Shown here one piece after another: positions 4,948 to 58,532 of a stretch of DNA of 64,000 nucleotides. The notes beneath the pieces were generated by a model, which was not told the DNA's origin, ran no database searches, and saw nothing but the letters and a program-made list of their open reading frames with translations. Origin of the DNA: Nocardia transvalensis NBRC 15921 (GTDB lineage: Bacteria > Actinomycetota > Actinomycetes > Mycobacteriales > Mycobacteriaceae). Where the stretch lies: contig NZ_BAGL01000064.1 of NCBI RefSeq assembly GCF_000308875.1, positions 1 through 64,000 on the forward strand, read 5' to 3'. Each line of letters opens with the position of its first letter. Positions within the stretch are counted from its first letter, which is position 1. The translations under genes and the position numbers were made by a program.

Positions 4948-6108
4948 GTGAGTGAGATCGTGAATCGTTCTGCCGAGAACGGCGATCCGGCGCCGTCGGC
5001 TACCGACCGCGGCACCGTGATCGGTGAAGGCCTGTTCTGGATGGCCAAGTGGTCGCTGTGCCTCGTGGCCGTGGCGGCGGGCGCCTGGGTGCTGGCGTTT
5101 CTCATCGCGAAGATGTGGGTGGTGTTGCTGCCGGTGCTGTTGGCGCTGGTCGTCGCCACCGTGCTGTGGCCGCCCACCCGCTGGCTCACCAGTCACCGCT
5201 TCCCGCCCGCGGCGGCCGCCGCGACCACCGTGATCGGATTCCTGGCGCTGTTCGCGGGCGTCATCGCGCTGATCGTGCCGTCGGTGGTGGGCCAGGCGCC
5301 GGAGCTGGCCGACCGGTCCAGCGAGGGCGTCCACCAGGTTCAGGACTGGTTGCAGGGCCCGCCGCTGAATATTCGGCAGGAGCAACTGGATTCGGCGGTG
5401 GACGCGATCGTCAGCCGGTTGCAGTCGAGTTCCGACCGGATCGCCTCCGGGGTCTTCAGCGGCGTGACCACCGCGACCTCGGTGATCGTGACTCTGTTCC
5501 TGGTGCTGATCCTGACGTTCTTCTTCATCAAGGACGGGCCGCGTTTCCTGCCGTGGCTGCACGGCGTGCTCGGCACCCGCGGCGGGCGGCACTTCGAGGA
5601 GGTGCTGAGCCGGATCTGGGTGACGCTGGGCGGATTCATCCGCACCCAGGCGCTGGTGAGCCTGATCGACGCGGTATTCATCGGCGCCGGTCTGGTCATC
5701 CTGCACGTGCCGCTCGCGATGGTGCTGGCCGTGATCACCTTCATCGGCGGATTCGTCCCGATGGTCGGCGCGTTCGTCGCCGGGGCGCTGGCGGTCCTGG
5801 TCGCCCTGGTGGCCAACGGATTCACCACCGCGCTGATCGTGCTCGGCATCATCATCGCGGTGCAGCAGATCGAAGGCAATGTGCTGCAACCGGTTCTGCA
5901 GAGCCGCAGCATGAAACTGCACGCCGTCATCGTCCTGCTCGCCGTCACCGCGGGCGGATCGCTGTTCGGCATCATCGGCGCGTTCCTCTCGGTCCCCATC
6001 GCCGCCGTGGCCGCCGTCGTGCTCCGCTACATCGGCGAGCAGATCGACAACGCCACAGCCCCGCCGCCGCCCCTGGAATCGGATCAGCCGGTGCCGGGCA
6101 CCGACTGA
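4948..6108 (+). CDS. AI-2E family membrane transporter
   Basis: 386-residue polytopic membrane protein of the AI-2E transporter family (PF01594): paired N-terminal helices, a soluble linker (residues ~115-180), then helices including VIVTLFLVLILTFFFIKDGP and the family-typical GGFIRTQALVSLIDAVFIG and IEGNVLQPVLQSRSMKLHA. Despite the name, substrates of most actinobacterial members are unknown. GTG start 49 bp after the P450. Two segments of this gene recur as a mosaic remnant near 9.2 kb. Confidence 0.9.
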   Translation: MSEIVNRSAENGDPAPSATDRGTVIGEGLFWMAKWSLCLVAVAAGAWVLAFLIAKMWVVLLPVLLALVVATVLWPPTRWLTSHRFPPAAAAATTVIGFLALFAGVIALIVPSVVGQAPELADRSSEGVHQVQDWLQGPPLNIRQEQLDSAVDAIVSRLQSSSDRIASGVFSGVTTATSVIVTLFLVLILTFFFIKDGPRFLPWLHGVLGTRGGRHFEEVLSRIWVTLGGFIRTQALVSLIDAVFIGAGLVILHVPLAMVLAVITFIGGFVPMVGAFVAGALAVLVALVANGFTTALIVLGIIIAVQQIEGNVLQPVLQSRSMKLHAVIVLLAVTAGGSLFGIIGAFLSVPIAAVAAVVLRYIGEQIDNATAPPPPLESDQPVPGTD

Positions 6109-6203
6109 TCTGCCTGTCAGGCGTGGGTGACGCCGGGCGCGGCACCGACTGATTCGTCTGTCAGGGGTTGGCGACGCCGGGCGCGGCACCGATTGATTTG
6201 CCC

Positions 6204-7382
6204 TCAGGCGCTGGCGAAGTCGGGAATTCGCAGTGCGGTGTGGGCGGGACGGCCCGCGTCGGCGGGCAGGGCGGTGAGGGTGCGCAGGGCCGTATTGCGT
6301 TGTGCCAGCGCCTCGTCCGTGGCGGGGAACAGCACGGCGTCGCCCTCGGTGACCAGGGCCTGGTTCTGCTCGACGAACGGCCGGGTGGCCTGCTCGTAGG
6401 CGGTGAACGCGCTCGTGTGATCGGGGGCGGTGGCCAGTTCGCCGGCGAGCATGTACGCGCCGACGAGGGCGATGCTCGAGCCCTGGCCGGTCAGGAACGA
6501 CGGGGCGTAGCCGGCATCGCCGACGAGGGCGACGCGTCCGGCCGACCAGCGGGGCAGGTGGATCTGGCTGACGACATCGAAGAACAGGTCGTCGTCGGCC
6601 CGCATCGCGGCGACCATGCGGGGGATCTCCCAGCCGGCGTCGGCGAAGACGGAGGCGACCAGATCGCGCTGGGTCGCCGGGTCGCGGAAGGCGTCGAACG
6701 GGGGCTCGGGCCGGGTGAAGTTGAGGAAGCCGTGGATGTACTCGCTGTCGCCCACGGCGTAGAGGGCGGCCCCGCGGCCCGGGGTGTTCCAGATGACGCC
6801 CTCGTGGGACAGGCCGAAGTCGTTGCGCATGGTGAAGCCGGCGAAGCAGTAGCCGAGGTAGCGGTGGAACCGTTCCTCGGGTCCGAATACGAGACCCCGC
6901 ACGCCGGAGTGCAGGCCGTCCGCGCCGATGACGAGGTCGAACGTGCGCCGTGCGCCGCTGCGGAAGGTCACGTCGACGCCACCCGCGTGGTCGTCGAGGG
7001 CCGTCACGATGTCGGTGAAGAGGAATTCGACATCGTCGCGGATGGCGTCGTAGAGAACCCGGGCGAGGTCGCCGCGGCGCACCTCCAGATCGCGGCCTTC
7101 GACCCCGCCGACGATCGCGTCCGGGCGGAGCGAGGTGATCGGGCTGCCGTCGGGGTGCAGGAACGTCAGCAGGCGGGTATTGATGTGCGCGTCCCGCAAC
7201 TGCGGCAGGAGGCCCATCCGCTCGACGACATCCAGGGCCGTGCCGCGGATGTCGATGGGGTATCCGCCGCCGCGCAGGGCGTCGGCCTTCTCCACCACCG
7301 TGACCTCGAAGCCGTAGCGATGCAGCCAATAGGCCAGCGCGGGACCCGCGATGCTGGCGCCGGAGATCAGAACCGTGCTCAT
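6204..7382 (-). CDS. FAD-dependent monooxygenase (UbiH/PHBH-type)
   Basis: 392-residue class A flavoprotein monooxygenase. N-terminal FAD Rossmann fold LISGASIAGPALAYWLHRYG followed by VVEKA; the second FAD motif is GRVALVGDAGYAPSFLTGQG near residue 280. ATG at 7382 is preferred over an in-frame GTG at 7388 because GAGGAG lies 5 nt before it. Relatives hydroxylate aromatics or inactivate tetracyclines and rifamycins; the substrate cannot be read here. Divergent from a MarR regulator, with one operator copy just upstream, so control by that regulator is likely. Confidence 0.85.
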   Translation of the reverse strand: MSTVLISGASIAGPALAYWLHRYGFEVTVVEKADALRGGGYPIDIRGTALDVVERMGLLPQLRDAHINTRLLTFLHPDGSPITSLRPDAIVGGVEGRDLEVRRGDLARVLYDAIRDDVEFLFTDIVTALDDHAGGVDVTFRSGARRTFDLVIGADGLHSGVRGLVFGPEERFHRYLGYCFAGFTMRNDFGLSHEGVIWNTPGRGAALYAVGDSEYIHGFLNFTRPEPPFDAFRDPATQRDLVASVFADAGWEIPRMVAAMRADDDLFFDVVSQIHLPRWSAGRVALVGDAGYAPSFLTGQGSSIALVGAYMLAGELATAPDHTSAFTAYEQATRPFVEQNQALVTEGDAVLFPATDEALAQRNTALRTLTALPADAGRPAHTALRIPDFASA

Positions 7383-34173: not shown

Positions 34174-34206
34174 CACCTCCACGCCTCCCCTTCGGACCAC
34201 CACGCG

Positions 34207-34277
34207 TTCACTCCAGGCAGCACGCCTTCATTCCAGGCCGCCACGTTTCTATTTTCCGGCGTGCTTTTGGCCGGAAA
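34207..34277 (+). repeat. Composite element: ~20-bp tandem units plus hairpin (copy A)
   Basis: Two ~20-bp units (34207-34226, 34227-34245; both begin TTCAyTCCAGGC) are followed by a hairpin with arms TTTCCGGC (34253-34260) and GCCGGAAA (34270-34277) around loop GTGCTTTTG. The same hairpin with loop ATGCTTTCG occurs on the other strand at 55379-55403 beside a 30-bp tandem repeat. May also terminate the upstream gene. Confidence 0.75.
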
Positions 34278-53769: not shown

Positions 53770-54224
53770 CACCACAGTGGGGCAGCATGCGCGAGCCGAA
53801 CCTGGACCCGACGGTCGAGGCGCTGGTTCGCGAGGTCATGGGTGCCGTCGACGACCTGCGTACCGCGCGGATTCGGCTGGAGAACCTCGACGTTTCCGAG
53901 ATCCTGCACGAACCGACCGTGGTCGACGACGAGTTCATGTCGAATCTCGCGGCGGCCGACGCGGCGTCGCCCGAACTGCGGGCCTACGCCGAGCGTGTCC
54001 GCGCGGGGGACTGTGAATGGCGCGATATCGAACGGCTCGCCCGACCGGTGCCGCCGGAGGTCGCGGGTTTGAAGGGCTCTCCCCACTTCGTCTGGCGCTG
54101 GGATTCCGCGCCGCCGCCGCCACCGGCGCCGCGTCCGAGGGCGGGCGACGATGTCGTCGGCCCGAGCGATTGGCCGGACGATTTCGATGATTACCCGACC
54201 GACAAGCCGTGGTGGGCCAGATGA
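53766..54224 (+). CDS. Small acidic protein of unknown function
   Basis: 152 residues: helical N-terminal part (VEALVREVMGAVDDLRTARIRLENLD), then a Pro-rich acidic tail ending DDFDDYPTDKPWWAR. No TM segment. Coupled to both neighbours by ATGA overlaps; likely a cytoplasmic partner or chaperone of the helical protein upstream. Confidence 0.65.
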   Translation: MTPQWGSMREPNLDPTVEALVREVMGAVDDLRTARIRLENLDVSEILHEPTVVDDEFMSNLAAADAASPELRAYAERVRAGDCEWRDIERLARPVPPEVAGLKGSPHFVWRWDSAPPPPPAPRPRAGDDVVGPSDWPDDFDDYPTDKPWWAR

Positions 54225-55663
54225 CGTGTTCTACTCAGCCGCAACGGGTTTGGCTGGTTTGGGTTGTTACTCGGGTGGTGATGGTGGTTTTTACCGGGGT
54301 TACGGCGTTGCCGCACAGTGTGTGGGACGGGGTGGCGGCGGATGTGGGGTTGTATCGGGAGTGGGCGGAGTTGATCGTGGGGCAGGGGGCCTTTCCGCTG
54401 CAGGATGAGCGGTGGCAGTATCCGCCGGGGACGGCGGGGCTGGTGGTGGCGCCGTGGTTGCTCGGTGGCGGGTACGGGTATCACTGGTTCTTCTACGGGA
54501 TGGTCGCGGCGGCGGATGCGGCGGTGCTGGCGTTGCTGATTCGGGCCGCGGGGCGGAAGGGGCATCCGGGCGCCTGGGCCGCGCCGTGGGTGTGGACGAT
54601 CGGGGTCGCGCTGCTGGGGCGGGTCTGTTACGGCCGGATCGATCTGATCGTGGCGGCCACCGCGGTCGCGGCGTTGCTGTGGGTGTCGGCGCGGCCGATC
54701 GCGGCCGGTGCGGCGGTGGCCGTGGGCGCGTTGCTGAAGCTGTGGCCGGTGGTGGTGTTGCTGGGGCTGCGGCGGCGGGCGCTGTGGCATGTGAGTGCGG
54801 CGGCGGCCGCGTTCGGTCTCGTGGCGGCCGCCGCGCTGACGGCGGTGGGGCCGGGCGCGTGGTCGTTCCTGCGGTTCCAGTCCGAGCGCGGGTTGCAGAT
54901 CGAATCCGCCGCGGCCACACCGTTTCTGATCGCGCGGCTGCTGAACGGCGGCTGGACCATTACGCATCGGTACGGGGCCGAGGAGCTGCTGGGGCCCGGA
55001 GTGTCGGCCGCCGCCCGCGGATGTGTGGTCGCCATGGTGGCGGGTGGGGCGATCCTGTTGCTGGCCTGGTGGCGCAGGCGGCCGCCGGCCGCGGATCTCG
55101 CCCTGGCGGCGGCATTGCTCGCCCTGGTGACCAGCCGGGTGCTCAGCCCGCAGTACGTGGTGTGGGCGGTGGCGCTGGCCGCGGTCTGCGCACTCGACGC
55201 GCACACCACACAGCGCCCGGTCGTGCGCCTGGTGCTGGCGACGGCGCTGCTGAGCCAGATCGAATTCCCGTTCGTATACGACCGGGTGGCGTCCGGAAGT
55301 TGGATCGGTGTCACGGTTCTGGTGTTGCGCAACGGGCTGTTGGTGTGTGCGACGGTGTGGTCTGTTGTGCGCCTGTGGTTTCCGGCCGAAAGCATGCCGG
55401 AAACAAGAGGGGGTTCGCCGCGCGGCGTGGAGGCAGGAGGGGGTTCGCCGCGCGGCGCGGAAACAAGAGAGGGTTCGCCGCGCGGCGCGGAGGCAGGAGA
55501 GGGTTCGGCGCGCGGCGCGGAGGCAGGCGGGGCTTTCGCGCGGGGTCCAGCGGTACGTGGAGATTCCGAGCGTGGTGTGGTGGCAACTGGGGATTCGGTG
55601 TGTGGTGTGGCGGCAAGTGAGAGTTCGGTGCGGGGTGCGGAGGTGGGTGTGCGTTCGGTGTAG
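54221..55663 (+). CDS. GT87-family mannosyltransferase with a repetitive C-terminal tail
   Basis: 480 residues. About 10-12 TM helices with GT87 features: a first loop containing DVGLYREWAELIVGQGAFPLQDERWQYPPG (Asp and the YPPG signature) and MLSPQY-like RVLSPQYVVWAVAL. GT87 enzymes use polyprenyl-phosphate mannose at the outer membrane face, as in mycobacterial PimE. ATG 54221 overlaps the previous stop. Residues ~397-480 are eight 10-residue units (GGSPRGVEAG, GGSPRGAETR, EGSPRGAEAG...) that become more divergent toward the end, encoded by a repeat element rather than by the enzyme fold. Confidence 0.85.
   Translation: MTCSTQPQRVWLVWVVTRVVMVVFTGVTALPHSVWDGVAADVGLYREWAELIVGQGAFPLQDERWQYPPGTAGLVVAPWLLGGGYGYHWFFYGMVAAADAAVLALLIRAAGRKGHPGAWAAPWVWTIGVALLGRVCYGRIDLIVAATAVAALLWVSARPIAAGAAVAVGALLKLWPVVVLLGLRRRALWHVSAAAAAFGLVAAAALTAVGPGAWSFLRFQSERGLQIESAAATPFLIARLLNGGWTITHRYGAEELLGPGVSAAARGCVVAMVAGGAILLLAWWRRRPPAADLALAAALLALVTSRVLSPQYVVWAVALAAVCALDAHTTQRPVVRLVLATALLSQIEFPFVYDRVASGSWIGVTVLVLRNGLLVCATVWSVVRLWFPAESMPETRGGSPRGVEAGGGSPRGAETREGSPRGAEAGEGSARGAEAGGAFARGPAVRGDSERGVVATGDSVCGVAASESSVRGAEVGVRSV
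55379..55660 (-). repeat. Composite element: hairpin plus 30-bp minisatellite (copy B)
   Basis: Hairpin arms TTTCCGGC (55379-55386) and GCCGGAAA (55396-55403), 9-nt loop, then 30-bp units at 55409, 55439, 55469 and 55499 (near-identical) and four diverged units to the stop codon. Same hairpin as 34253-34277 in the opposite orientation, again flanked on the same relative side by tandem units. Lies inside the GT87 frame. Confidence 0.85.
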
Positions 55664-55668
55664 TGGAG

Positions 55669-57303
55669 TCAGGGTGGTGGGGCGGTGAGGCGGGTGCGTA
55701 GGGCCTTCTTGTCGACCTTTCCCACGGCTGTGAGGGGGAGGGTGGTGATGGGTTCTACCTGGTCGGGGAGTTTGTGGGGGGCCAGGCCGCGGTGGTGGAG
55801 GAAGGTGCGGAGGTCGGTGCGGGACGGGGGGTCGGATTCGGGGACGATGAAGGCGCAGACGCGTTCGCCCAGGAGGTCGTCGGGGGCGGCGACCACGGCG
55901 GCGTCGCGGACGGCCGGGTGGAGGAGCAGGTGTTCCTCGACCTCCTCGGTCGGGACCTTTTCGCCGGCGCGGTTCACGACGTCCTTGGCGCGGTCGACGA
56001 CGATCAGGTCTCCGGAGGGCAGGCGGCGGACGATATCGCCGGTACGGTAGAAGCCGTCGGCGGTGAAGGAGCGTGAATTGTGTTCGGGGGCACGGTAATA
56101 GCCGCGAATCGTGTACGGGCCGCGGGTGAGGAGATGGCCGGGGGCGCCGTCGGGCACGGGCCGGTCCTCGTCGTCGACCACCCGGACCTCGTCTCCGGGT
56201 GACATGGGCCGGCCCTGGGTCTCGGTGACGATGTCGTCGGGATCGTCCAGGCGGGTGTAGTTCACCAGCCCCTCCGCCATGCCGAACACCTGTTGCAGCG
56301 TGCACCCGAGAACGGGGCGGACCCGCGCAGCGGCCGAGGGTTTGAACCGCGAGCCGCCGACCTGCAGCACGCGCAGGCTCGACAGGTCGTACGCCGTGTA
56401 CTCGGCCTCCTCGAGCCAGAGCATCGCCAACGTGGGCACCAGCGCGGCGACGGTGACCCGCTGCTTCTCGATCAGCGCGAACGCCTCGTCCACATCGGGC
56501 GTCGGCGCCAGCGCGACCGTCGCCCCCGCCGCCAGCGCGCCGAGAATGCCCGGCGAGCTGAGCGGGAAGTTGTGCGCCACCGGCAGCACGCCGAGGTACA
56601 CGTCGCCCGGACCCATCGGGCACACCTCGAGGCTCGCGCGCACGCTGTAGGCGTAGTCGTCGTGCGTGCGGGGAATCAGCTTCGGCACGGAGGTCGTCCC
56701 GCCCGACAGTTGCAGCAGCGCCATATCGCCGGGGTCGGCGTCGCCCAGCGGTATCGGGTCCGGATACAGATCCGCCAGCGCCACATGCCCACCCGCGTCG
56801 CCGTGCACGATCAGATGCCGCAGACTCGGGCACGCGGCCAGGATCCGTTCGCCCAGCCCGCGATAGTCGAAGCCCAGATGCCGGTCCGCGACGATATACG
56901 CCGCGGCCTCGCTCACCCGGCAGATGTGCTCGATCTCGCGCTCGCGGTGGGCGGGCTGGGCGAGGACCGGCAGCGCGCCGATCCGGAACAGCGCGAAGCA
57001 TACGACGGCGAATTCCCCGACGTTCGGCAGCTGCACGATCACGCGGTCGCCGCGCCGGACACCCAGCCCGTGCAACCCGGCCGCGAGCCGATGCGCCTGC
57101 TGGTCGAGGCGGGCGTAGGTCCACGTGCTCACCGCGTCGCGCAGCGCGATCCGGTCGGCATGGCGCGCGGCGCATTCGGTGAGCATGCCGCCGAACGTGG
57201 CGCCGTTCCACCACCCGGCCCGGCGATACCGCGCCGCGACGTCGCCGGGCCACGCGGTGAACCCGTCGGGGGAGGCGGCGCGCGCCGAGGTCGATGCGGT
57301 CAT
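55669..57303 (-). CDS. dhbE: 2,3-dihydroxybenzoate-AMP ligase
   Basis: 544-residue stand-alone adenylation enzyme. P-loop SGGTTSVPK, aryl-acid pocket signature PVAHNFPLSSPG, GMAEGLVNYTRLDDP, hinge FYRTGDIVRR and catalytic Lys in LTAVGKVDKK. Activates 2,3-dihydroxybenzoate (or salicylate) as the adenylate and loads an aryl carrier protein. Neighbouring DHB-forming enzymes favour DHB. Last gene of the operon; ATGA overlap with isochorismate synthase. Confidence 0.92.
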   Translation of the reverse strand: MTASTSARAASPDGFTAWPGDVAARYRRAGWWNGATFGGMLTECAARHADRIALRDAVSTWTYARLDQQAHRLAAGLHGLGVRRGDRVIVQLPNVGEFAVVCFALFRIGALPVLAQPAHREREIEHICRVSEAAAYIVADRHLGFDYRGLGERILAACPSLRHLIVHGDAGGHVALADLYPDPIPLGDADPGDMALLQLSGGTTSVPKLIPRTHDDYAYSVRASLEVCPMGPGDVYLGVLPVAHNFPLSSPGILGALAAGATVALAPTPDVDEAFALIEKQRVTVAALVPTLAMLWLEEAEYTAYDLSSLRVLQVGGSRFKPSAAARVRPVLGCTLQQVFGMAEGLVNYTRLDDPDDIVTETQGRPMSPGDEVRVVDDEDRPVPDGAPGHLLTRGPYTIRGYYRAPEHNSRSFTADGFYRTGDIVRRLPSGDLIVVDRAKDVVNRAGEKVPTEEVEEHLLLHPAVRDAAVVAAPDDLLGERVCAFIVPESDPPSRTDLRTFLHHRGLAPHKLPDQVEPITTLPLTAVGKVDKKALRTRLTAPPP

Positions 57304-58532
57304 CGTGATCTCTCCAGGGTATCGGAAACGTCAGCGGTACAGCGTGTTTCGAGATCCTCGAGGCCGAACACCGACAGCAGTGTCCGCAGTTTGCCCGAGG
57401 TCTCGGCCAGTTCCAGGCCGGGGTCGGAACCCGCGACGATCCCCGCGCCCGCGTACAGCCGGGCACCGGCGCCGGTGACCTCGGCGCAGCGCAGCGAGAG
57501 GATCCATTCGCCGTCGCCCGCGGCGTCCATCCAGCCGGTCAGCCCGGCGTAGAAGCGGCGGTCGAAGCCCTCGATCTCGGCGAGGAGTTCCCGCGCCGCG
57601 CCGGTCGGCGTGCCGCACACGGCCGGCGTCGGATGCAATGCGGCGGCCAGCTCCAGCGAACTCACGCCGGGGTCCGCGAGCGTTCCCTGAATCGGAGTCG
57701 ACAGATGCCACATGGTCCGGGTGCGAACGAGTTCCGGCTCGGGCACCCGCAGTTCGGCGCAGTAGGGGCGCAGCGCGTCGGCGACCGCCTCGATGACGAT
57801 GCGGTGCTCGTGCAGATCCTTGGCCGAACGCCGCAGCGCCCGGGCCCGGCGGCGATCCTCCGCCGGGTCGGCGCTGCGGCTCGCGGACCCCGCCAGCGGA
57901 TTGGTGACCACCTCCGGACCGGTCTTCCGGATCACCAGCTCTGGGCTGGCCCCGATCAGGGTGGGCCGCACGGCGCGGCCGGGCGGCGCGAGTTTCGTCG
58001 CGAAGACGTAGGCGTCCGGATTGCCCTGTGCCGCACGCAGAGCCAGGGCGGCGACCGGAATCGTTGTGCGCGTGCCGATATCGAGGGCCCGCGCGAGCAC
58101 CACCTTGCGGAGATCGGTGCGTGCGATCCGCTCCACCACCGTGCGCACCCCGTCGGCATAGGCCACGGGGCCGGGTGTCGACTCGGCGCGCTCGACTCCC
58201 GAGACAGGCGCGGGCAGAGCATCTTTCGGTAGCACCGACGACCGCTCCCACCGGACGCTCGCCGCGATCGCCAGCCGCGCACCGGCTACGTCGCCGAACG
58301 GCACGGCCCCGACCAGCAGCGGTCGCGGCGACACGGCCCGGGTGGTCAGCAGCCGGTGCGCGGCGCGAGCGAGATCGGCCAGGCGGGTGTGGCCCGAGGC
58401 GTCGATCTCGTGCACCGGATCCGCGGCGAGCAGCGTCCCGCGCGGCGTAGTGAGGAAGAACTCGCTCGCCTCGATATCCGAAATCCACTGCGGGAGCGCG
58501 CTGTCCGCGCACCGCGTCGTGTCGATGGTCAT
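57300..58532 (-). CDS. dhbC: Isochorismate synthase
   Basis: 410-residue chorismate-binding enzyme: LRKVVLARAL with the general base Lys, NPLAGSASR, HPTPAVCGTP, WILSLRCAEV and AGAGIVAGSDPGLELAET. These match EntC/DhbC rather than salicylate synthases of the MbtI type. GAGGAG lies 8 nt before ATG 58532. Converts chorismate to isochorismate. Confidence 0.92.
   Translation of the reverse strand: MTIDTTRCADSALPQWISDIEASEFFLTTPRGTLLAADPVHEIDASGHTRLADLARAAHRLLTTRAVSPRPLLVGAVPFGDVAGARLAIAASVRWERSSVLPKDALPAPVSGVERAESTPGPVAYADGVRTVVERIARTDLRKVVLARALDIGTRTTIPVAALALRAAQGNPDAYVFATKLAPPGRAVRPTLIGASPELVIRKTGPEVVTNPLAGSASRSADPAEDRRRARALRRSAKDLHEHRIVIEAVADALRPYCAELRVPEPELVRTRTMWHLSTPIQGTLADPGVSSLELAAALHPTPAVCGTPTGAARELLAEIEGFDRRFYAGLTGWMDAAGDGEWILSLRCAEVTGAGARLYAGAGIVAGSDPGLELAETSGKLRTLLSVFGLEDLETRCTADVSDTLERSR

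What the first reader, a model, noticed from the sequence alone, without database searches (positions are those of the whole stretch)
55379..55660. A dispersed hairpin-minisatellite element has become the C-terminus of a GT87 enzyme
The last ~85 residues are eight decapeptide units encoded by a 30-bp tandem repeat, preceded by a perfect 8-bp-arm hairpin. The same hairpin (arms identical, loop 7/9) with tandem units on the same side occurs in the opposite orientation at 34207-34277. This suggests an unnamed interspersed repeat family able to insert near gene ends and extend reading frames. Units decay with distance from the hairpin, as if they are generated there.
Basis: partly seen in the sequence, partly recalled or inferred. 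Interest (0 to 1): 0.62.

Follow-up and report, generated by a model that had tools for sequence, protein, structure and literature searches.

The report
REP-like Nocardia hairpin with half-hairpin arrays
A short hairpin sequence scattered in hundreds of copies near gene ends in some Nocardia bacteria sometimes carries strings of repeats made from one half of itself, and here one such string has become the tail of a predicted sugar-transfer enzyme.

Summary
A perfect hairpin (55379-55403, minus strand) starts where conservation of the GT87 protein stops, and about eight 30-bp units follow in frame to the stop codon. The hairpin occurs 488 times in this Nocardia genome (up to 3 mismatches; reversed-pattern control 0). 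By covariance model, 28 of 148 Nocardia genomes have 8 or more copies; other Actinomycetota sampled have at most 1-2 weak matches.

It is REP-like: covarying stem, head-to-head dimers, positions just past stop codons, avoidance of divergent gaps, gain at a site that is empty in relatives, no Y1 (RAYT-type) transposase found in this genome. Copies in N. uniformis, N. concava and N. inohanensis carry the CGTC tag and mostly the CCA tail of published CGTC REPs; the window genome's copies lack the tag, and the loop is longer than published.

The unusual part is the array. About 19% of 5' flanks carry a minisatellite, while 3' flanks are at background; the unit is local sequence plus exactly the 5' half of the hairpin. 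Repetition stops sharply at one loop position (RYGC|TTTT), here and in loci of other Nocardia species, suggesting a fixed switch or break point. The GT87 tail looks incidental: no counterpart in 17 orthologues, codon composition not coding-like. Verdict: new variant of a known kind.

The parts
55379..55403 (-). REP-like hairpin, single (not dimer), flank CTTGT, no CGTC tag; on the plus strand it is read as part of FPAESMPET in the GT87 ORF
55404..55660 (-). 30-bp minisatellite on the 5' side of the hairpin, about 8 units; some units keep a decayed copy of the 5' half of the hairpin with its flank (CTCTTGTTTCCG...); read on the plus strand as the decapeptide tail
54209..55663 (+). GT87 glycosyltransferase ORF, 484 codons from the first possible start; conserved with orthologues only to about residue 390, i.e. 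up to the hairpin
34253..34277 (+). second hairpin copy, between two genes pointing the same way
34201..34252 (+). about two decayed tandem units on the 5' side of the second hairpin

Best explanation
A REP-like palindromic element (probably an actinobacterial offshoot of the CGTC-tagged REPs) that has spread in some Nocardia lineages, alone or as head-to-head dimers, and sits mostly just behind stop codons. After arrival the hairpin can seed tandem duplication of its own 5' half plus adjacent local DNA. Inferred mechanism: a strand that has copied the 5' arm is released, or the folded loop is nicked, between RYGC and TTTT; the freed 3' end re-anneals one step back and adds a unit; internal slippage then reshapes the array. 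At the GT87 gene the element lies at the end of the conserved coding region. Because the 30-bp unit is a multiple of three and has no stop in that frame, the ORF now runs through hairpin and array to a stop 5 bp from the convergent neighbour's stop. Shown: the family, stem covariation, placement, one clear site gain, one-sided arrays, sharp boundary, tail absent from orthologues. Inferred: the strand-switch or nick mechanism, the means of dispersal, and that the GT87 tail is neutral.
For: Family: 248 + 240 matches up to 3 mismatches in own genome, control 0; core in 21 of 118 Nocardia genomes, up to 679 per genome (reversed control: 1 match, in G060); covariance model: 28 of 148 Nocardia genomes with 8 or more matches. 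Stem: the pair outside the core is T-A 92, C-G 40, unpaired 1 of 133 (expected paired 76.7), and 159 of 163 paired in other species (expected 85.5); covariation score 0.230 against 0.095 shuffled. Dimers: 39 head-to-head in own sample, 52 in other species. Placement: gaps with hairpin convergent/tandem/divergent 32/40/3, gaps without 13/74/58; nearest stop at a median of 17 bp in 39 convergent gaps; in 44 tandem gaps medians 35 bp to the upstream stop and 140 bp to the next start (counted). Gain: an N. mexicana gap holds a dimer with arrays on both sides; the other 29 of 30 fetched loci align through this junction without such an insert. Arrays: 20 of 107 5' flanks against 1 of 52 3' flanks (own), 28 of 143 against 3 of 53 (others), 6 of 146 in hairpin-free gaps. 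Boundary: repeat match at hairpin offsets 0-10 0.64 and 0.67, at offset 11 0.19 and 0.17, period set from upstream sequence alone (21 own and 12 other arrays).
Against: The window genome's copies have no CGTC tag (0 of 132), the third stem pair outside the core forms in only 56 of 133 of them, and the loop is 9 nt, not the published 4-5. About 80% of 5' flanks show no array at the threshold used. The hairpin-proximal unit pair is not the most alike, so continued growth at the hairpin is not shown. Plain polymerase slippage should act on both strands and does not explain one-sidedness. Long gaps also arise without the hairpin: at the N. mexicana junction three other genomes (G116, G092, G171) have gaps of 263-408 bp with no convincing family hairpin. 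Presence/absence was seen between species, not strains. The gene finder was home-made and crude.
Confidence: 0.7

Rival explanations
1. The hairpins are transcription terminators kept by selection; the repeats beside them are ordinary minisatellites of 3' untranslated regions.
For: Position just past stop codons, excess between convergent genes, depletion in divergent gaps; stem maintained by covariation; some own-genome copies have locus-specific stem extensions (9 of 133 with 6 or more extra pairs, shuffled mean 1.2, largest of 200 shuffles 4; 0 of 163 in other species). Long repetitive gaps can exist without the hairpin.
Against: Arms and loop sequence are the same at hundreds of loci and the core is missing from 97 of 118 congeners, which selection for a terminator shape does not explain. 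No T-run follows the stem: 0 of 128 on either strand have 5 or more T in 8. At GT87 the hairpin lies upstream of the stop codon, where an efficient terminator would truncate the message. Arrays are in register with the hairpin. It may still be true as a secondary role.
Confidence: 0.16
2. The element is a RAYT-mobilised REP/REPIN of the GTAG kind.
For: High copy number, inverted dimers 10-45 bp apart, gene-end placement.
Against: No GTAG in the flank consensus of any species sampled. No Y1 transposase match (PF01797) in the window genome; of ten other hairpin-bearing genomes 3 have one, and G060 with 679 copies has none.
Confidence: 0.06
3. The GT87 tail is a selected protein feature (a repetitive charged C-terminal region) rather than a by-product.
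For: The frame is open through about 8.5 units, which a 30-bp period allows.
Against: No such tail in 17 orthologues, whose own tails differ in length and sequence; GC by codon position of the tail is 0.79/0.72/0.61 against 0.73/0.55/0.89 in the body, so codon usage has not adapted; the same kind of array occurs in non-coding gaps.
Confidence: 0.07

Closest known systems
CGTC-tagged REPs (Di Nocera et al. 2013, PMC3733652; abstract, sections 6, 14, 15 and passages read; includes Neisseria dRS3 and Rickettsia RPE-4/RPE-6)
   Same: 8-bp stem with A/T pairs at its base, CGTC/TGTC tag and CCA tail in N. uniformis, N. concava and N. inohanensis copies; mostly head-to-head dimers; convergent and unidirectional gaps close to stops; some copies inside ORFs; no dedicated transposase reported
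   Different: Published phyla are Proteobacteria, Chlorobi, Bacteroidetes, Spirochaetes, Thermotogae; loop 4-5 nt there as a rule, 9 nt here; tag absent in the window genome; half-hairpin arrays not found in the parts read
GTAG REPs / REPINs with RAYT (TnpA-REP) transposases (PMC3116915 listing only; PMC8266576 passages)
   Same: short palindromes, inverted dimers, hundreds of copies, gene-end placement
   Different: different tag; no Y1 transposase found in the window genome; published TnpA-REP cuts outside the stem-loop (CT, in one system also CA), not in the loop
BrickBuilt, a minisatellite-containing MITE of Porphyromonas gingivalis (PMC4596501, abstract and outline read)
   Same: interspersed intergenic element that contains a tandem array (23-nt unit)
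   Different: there the repeat unit is part of the element; here the unit is locus-specific local DNA plus half the hairpin
Rickettsia palindromic elements inserted in frame in genes (as described in PMC3733652 passages)
   Same: palindromic element read as part of a protein; seen here in Nocardia NRPS genes
   Different: the GT87 case is a C-terminal extension mostly by the array, not an internal insert

Membership tests
CGTC-tagged REP | unpaired CGTC (or TGTC, CCTC) tag at one end | tested here: inconclusive
   N. uniformis 61 of 66, N. concava 38 of 42, N. inohanensis 11 of 11, N. mexicana 6 of 18, N. wallacei (740803001) 0 of 11, window genome 0 of 132. Met by relatives' copies, not met by the window genome's own
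CGTC-tagged REP | stem 8-9 bp with A/T pairs at its base | tested here: met
   in other species the outermost (-3) pair forms in 133 of 163 and the next in 157 of 163; in the window genome the outermost forms in only 56 of 133 (7-bp stem otherwise)
CGTC-tagged REP | loop 4-5 nt in most families | tested here: not met
   9-nt loop RYGCTTTTG (the paper notes other loop lengths in a few species)
CGTC-tagged REP | unpaired CCA tail | tested here: met
   N. uniformis 61 of 66, N. concava 41 of 42, N. inohanensis 7 of 11; weaker in N. mexicana 5 of 18, N. wallacei 2 of 11, window genome 50 of 132
CGTC-tagged REP | mostly head-to-head dimers, tail-to-tail rare, head-to-tail negligible | tested here: met
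   neighbours within 250 bp: own 39 head-to-head, 13 tail-to-tail, 0 same-direction; others 52, 2, 2
CGTC-tagged REP | convergent/unidirectional gaps, close to 3' ends | tested here: met
CGTC-tagged REP | no dedicated transposase | tested here: inconclusive
   only Y1 (PF01797) was searched: absent in own genome, present in 3 of 10 other carriers; other transposase families not searched
GTAG REP / REPIN with RAYT | GTAG tag | tested here: not met
   flank consensus by species shows CGTCAT-like or T-rich flanks, no GTAG
GTAG REP / REPIN with RAYT | RAYT gene in the genome | tested here: not met
   (own genome); 7 of 10 other carriers without a match
Rho-independent terminator | GC hairpin followed by T-run | tested here: not met
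   0 of 128 hairpins have 5 or more T in the 8 nt after the stem, on either strand
Rho-independent terminator | RNA 3' ends at the hairpin | not testable with these tools
   no transcript data

The most novel reading that the evidence does not exclude
The hairpin is processed at one fixed point of its loop (between RYGC and TTTT), by a nuclease or a programmed polymerase release. The 3' end left there repeatedly copies half of the element and its flank, so a REP is both a dispersed element and a directional minisatellite generator. This may also be how CGTC-type REPs move without a transposase: template switching from the loop.
Probability: 0.25. Interest if true: 0.7.

Novelty: new variant of a known kind. 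Interest (0 to 1): 0.45.

Why it matters
CGTC-type REPs have no known enzyme for spreading, an open point stated in the 2013 paper. A family in Nocardia, with a copy gained between near relatives and arrays that end at the same base of the loop, offers a mark of a possible intermediate (a 3' end in the loop) and a place to test it. It also shows concretely how a REP-like element can lengthen a protein: a stop-proximal hairpin plus an array period divisible by three.

Tried and rejected
Rfam search of five hairpin loci (5 of the 60 stretches) gave only sub-threshold matches, mostly microRNA-type hairpins. RAYT mobilisation: no Y1 match in own genome, patchy elsewhere. The idea that arrays are youngest at the hairpin: tested on 22 own and 27 other arrays, not supported as a gradient. 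A first, strictly anchored array test found fewer arrays (own 12 of 127 and others 12 of 151 above the 99.9% null; 3' sides of singles 0 of 52 and 0 of 56) than the unanchored one. A simple count of half-hairpin motifs around hairpins was too noisy (background 54% of 300-bp pieces hold one). The GT87 array as a dispersed minisatellite: only itself found in the genome. Presence outside Nocardia: 396 Actinomycetota genomes (window genome and some Nocardia included, strict filters), 60 with a model match, each but the window genome with only 1-2, best 31.2 bits against 44.4; 0 of 24 other-genus genomes by pattern (G036-G059). Shewanella canadensis has one exact and two one-mismatch copies; I could not widen this to its genus. 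Literature: seven searches; in the listings shown (20 of 268, 15 of 57, 12 of 39, the others whole) I saw no paper on such a family in Nocardia; the library lacks most subscription journals. Papers seen in part: PMC5217627 (passages), PMC12306157 (one passage), PMC3733652 (abstract, sections 6, 14, 15, passages), PMC4596501 (abstract, outline), PMC8266576 (passages).

In one search, 12 of 30 loci were unreadable by the motif used and 18 were read (my notebook entry says 20, which is wrong); the 29-of-30 figure rests on the continuous matches and a hairpin scan of all 30 loci. In one search flanks overlapping another hairpin or a contig end were left out. G166 matched GT87 DNA but was not fetched, so it is not among the 17 orthologues.

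Full report
WHAT IS THERE. At 55379-55403 (minus strand) lies TTTCCGGCATGCTTTCGGCCGGAAA; at 34253-34277 (plus strand) TTTCCGGCGTGCTTTTGGCCGGAAA. No match is found in 100 shuffles of the window. The first lies inside the ORF 54209-55663, a GT87 family protein (PF09594), and is followed by about eight 30-bp units in frame. The ORF stops 5 bp short of the stop of the convergent neighbour 55669-57303, whose best NCBIfam match is (2,3-dihydroxybenzoyl)adenylate synthase (695.5 bits, below that model's cut-off of 723.55).

THE FAMILY. With up to 3 mismatches the hairpin pattern occurs 248 + 240 times in the genome and never reversed. The core CCGGCNNGCTTTTGGCCGG is in 21 of 118 Nocardia genomes: 430 copies here, 679 in G060, 267 in G019, none in 97; the reversed control has one match, in G060. 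A covariance model built from 42 hairpins finds 75 of 148 Nocardia genomes with at least one match; 28 of them have 8 or more (52 was the most scored per genome), the others 1-4. In 396 Actinomycetota genomes, the 60 with a match have, apart from the window genome, 1-2 weak ones each.

THE STEM IS MAINTAINED. In 133 cores from 60 fetched stretches plus the window, the pair just outside the core is T-A 92 times, C-G 40 times and unpaired once, where 76.7 pairs are expected from independent columns; in 82 loci of other species 159 of 163 pair (expected 85.5). On the 42-sequence alignment 31 cells change on both sides (shuffled mean 10.9, 0 of 500 shuffles as high); five of the eight pairs never vary and the outermost is unpaired in 13 of 42. 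Related copies inflate such counts, but the T-A/C-G swap is nearly exclusive.

ORGANISATION AND PLACE. Head-to-head pairs predominate: 39 here with 10-29 bp between cores and 52 in other species with 10-44 bp. With a home-made codon-usage gene finder, gaps of 60 bp or more that hold a hairpin are convergent 32, tandem 40, divergent 3; those without, in the same stretches, are 13, 74, 58. The nearest stop is at a median of 17 bp in 39 convergent gaps; in 44 tandem gaps the upstream stop is at a median of 35 bp and the next start at 140 bp. Of 90 elements (38 dimers, 52 singles; 3 unplaced at stretch ends) one is inside a predicted gene, GT87. This is the placement published for REPs (PMC3733652 section 15).

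GAIN AT AN EMPTY SITE. N. wallacei L052 and N. mexicana L079 share flanks 88-93% identical. In L052 the upstream gene ends at 1670 and the next can start inside its stop codon (ATGA, my reading); in L079 about 380 bp with a dimer and arrays on both sides begin within a few bases of the same stop. The two genes look like a GGPP synthase and a phytoene desaturase (read from the sequences, recalled, no family search). The junction was searched in 148 genomes. Of 30 loci fetched, 29 align through it in one piece; the exception is G093, which is N. mexicana (17 of 17 200-mers identical to L079), and it is the only one of the 30 loci with a hairpin. The window genome, with its 488 hairpins, is empty there. 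Three further genomes not among the 30 (G116, G092, G171) also have long gaps at this junction (408, 285, 263 bp); I fetched them and saw no convincing family hairpin, only chance-level matches to a very loose pattern. So gaps can lengthen in other ways too. In the Nocardia MAG RYN_116 (L057) two dimers lie in open frame in NRPS genes (Condensation, AMP-binding and PP-binding domains); N. acidivorans (L041) has a related dimer at one of the two places and none at the other.

THE ARRAYS. Self-repetition above the 99% null level is found in 20 of 107 5' flanks against 1 of 52 3' flanks here, in 28 of 143 against 3 of 53 in other species, and in 6 of 146 hairpin-free gaps (Fisher P 0.0023, 0.016, and 0.00024 for own 5' flanks against hairpin-free gaps). 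In the strongest arrays printed, periods run from 17 to 58 bp, mostly 20-36; units differ from locus to locus and are mostly in register with the hairpin. When the period is set from the upstream sequence alone, the repeat continues into the hairpin through TTCCGGCRYGC (mean match 0.64 here, 0.67 elsewhere, with a dip at the variable RY) and drops at the next base (0.19 and 0.17; 21 and 12 arrays). The unit therefore contains the 5' half of the hairpin and ends at one point of the loop. The hairpin-bearing unit is less like its neighbour (0.82) than the next two are to each other (0.90), so arrays also evolve internally, and continued growth at the hairpin is not shown.

THE GT87 TAIL. Seventeen orthologues from other genomes are conserved up to about ATVWSVVRLW and then have unrelated tails of 14 to 99 residues; none of the 17 loci has a hairpin. 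In the window genome the hairpin starts right after those residues. GC at codon positions is 0.79/0.72/0.61 in the tail and 0.73/0.55/0.89 in the body. The array finds no second place in the genome. I read the tail as a by-product of a stop-proximal hairpin whose array has a period divisible by three; whether it is translated is untested.

WHAT IT IS LIKE. In N. uniformis, N. concava and N. inohanensis the copies read CGTCAT(T/C)CCGGC-loop-GCCGG(A/G)ATCCA as a rule, which is the layout given for CGTC REPs: tag, 8-bp stem with A/T pairs at the base, CCA tail, head-to-head dimers, no dedicated transposase. The loop is 9 nt, longer than published, and the window genome's copies have no tag (0 of 132), so I do not file them as CGTC REPs without reservation. 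Actinobacteria are not among the five phyla listed there. Shewanella canadensis has one exact and two one-mismatch copies; the exact one is followed by a GGAATGACA flank, which hints at a common origin with proteobacterial elements but is a small sample.

HOW IT MAY WORK. Shown: family, stem, placement, one clear gain, one-sided arrays, fixed boundary. Inferred: the hairpin folds in single-stranded DNA; a 3' end is produced or released in the loop after RYGC; it re-anneals upstream and copies one more spacer plus half hairpin. Nothing here shows which enzyme, if any, makes that end, or how the element reaches new sites. Hairpin nucleases such as SbcCD are a natural suspect (PMC3733652 section 14 mentions SbcCD in removing such structures; not tested here).

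Noticed in passing
L057:4442-4518 and L057:6943-7019; L041:5884-5975: REP dimers lie in open frame inside NRPS genes of Nocardia MAG RYN_116 and N. acidivorans, read as peptides such as VIPARFRPGSTP...VDSGQKHAGMT.
   Followed up: partly
L079:5088-5470: In N. mexicana a dimer plus arrays separates two genes that are adjacent or overlapping in N. wallacei.
   Followed up: yes
L249:565-973: At the same junction G116 has a 408-bp gap made of degenerate short repeats (GTCATCCGCACCGGCCCGGC-like) without a clear hairpin; could be a decayed array or an unrelated minisatellite.
   Followed up: no
L021:6011-6033: Shewanella canadensis carries an exact copy of the Nocardia hairpin with a GGAATGACA flank, near a second palindrome (GTCATCCTGAA...TTCAGGATCCAG).
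   Followed up: partly
L126-L185 (60 stretches of the window genome): Some hairpins of the window genome have locus-specific stem extensions (9 of 133 with 6 or more extra pairs, shuffled mean 1.2); 0 of 163 in other species.
   Followed up: partly
hairpin loop, 133 own and 163 other cores: The two loop bases RY take the forms AC, AT, GT, GC, as if two CpG sites in GCGCGC were each free to mutate; proportions differ between the window genome and the others.
   Followed up: no
window 6097-6224: A 44-bp tandem repeat, 2.9 copies; no family hairpin there.
   Followed up: no
window 55669-58532: A DHB-AMP ligase-like and an isochorismate synthase gene, suggesting a catechol siderophore cluster next to the GT87 gene.
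   Followed up: no
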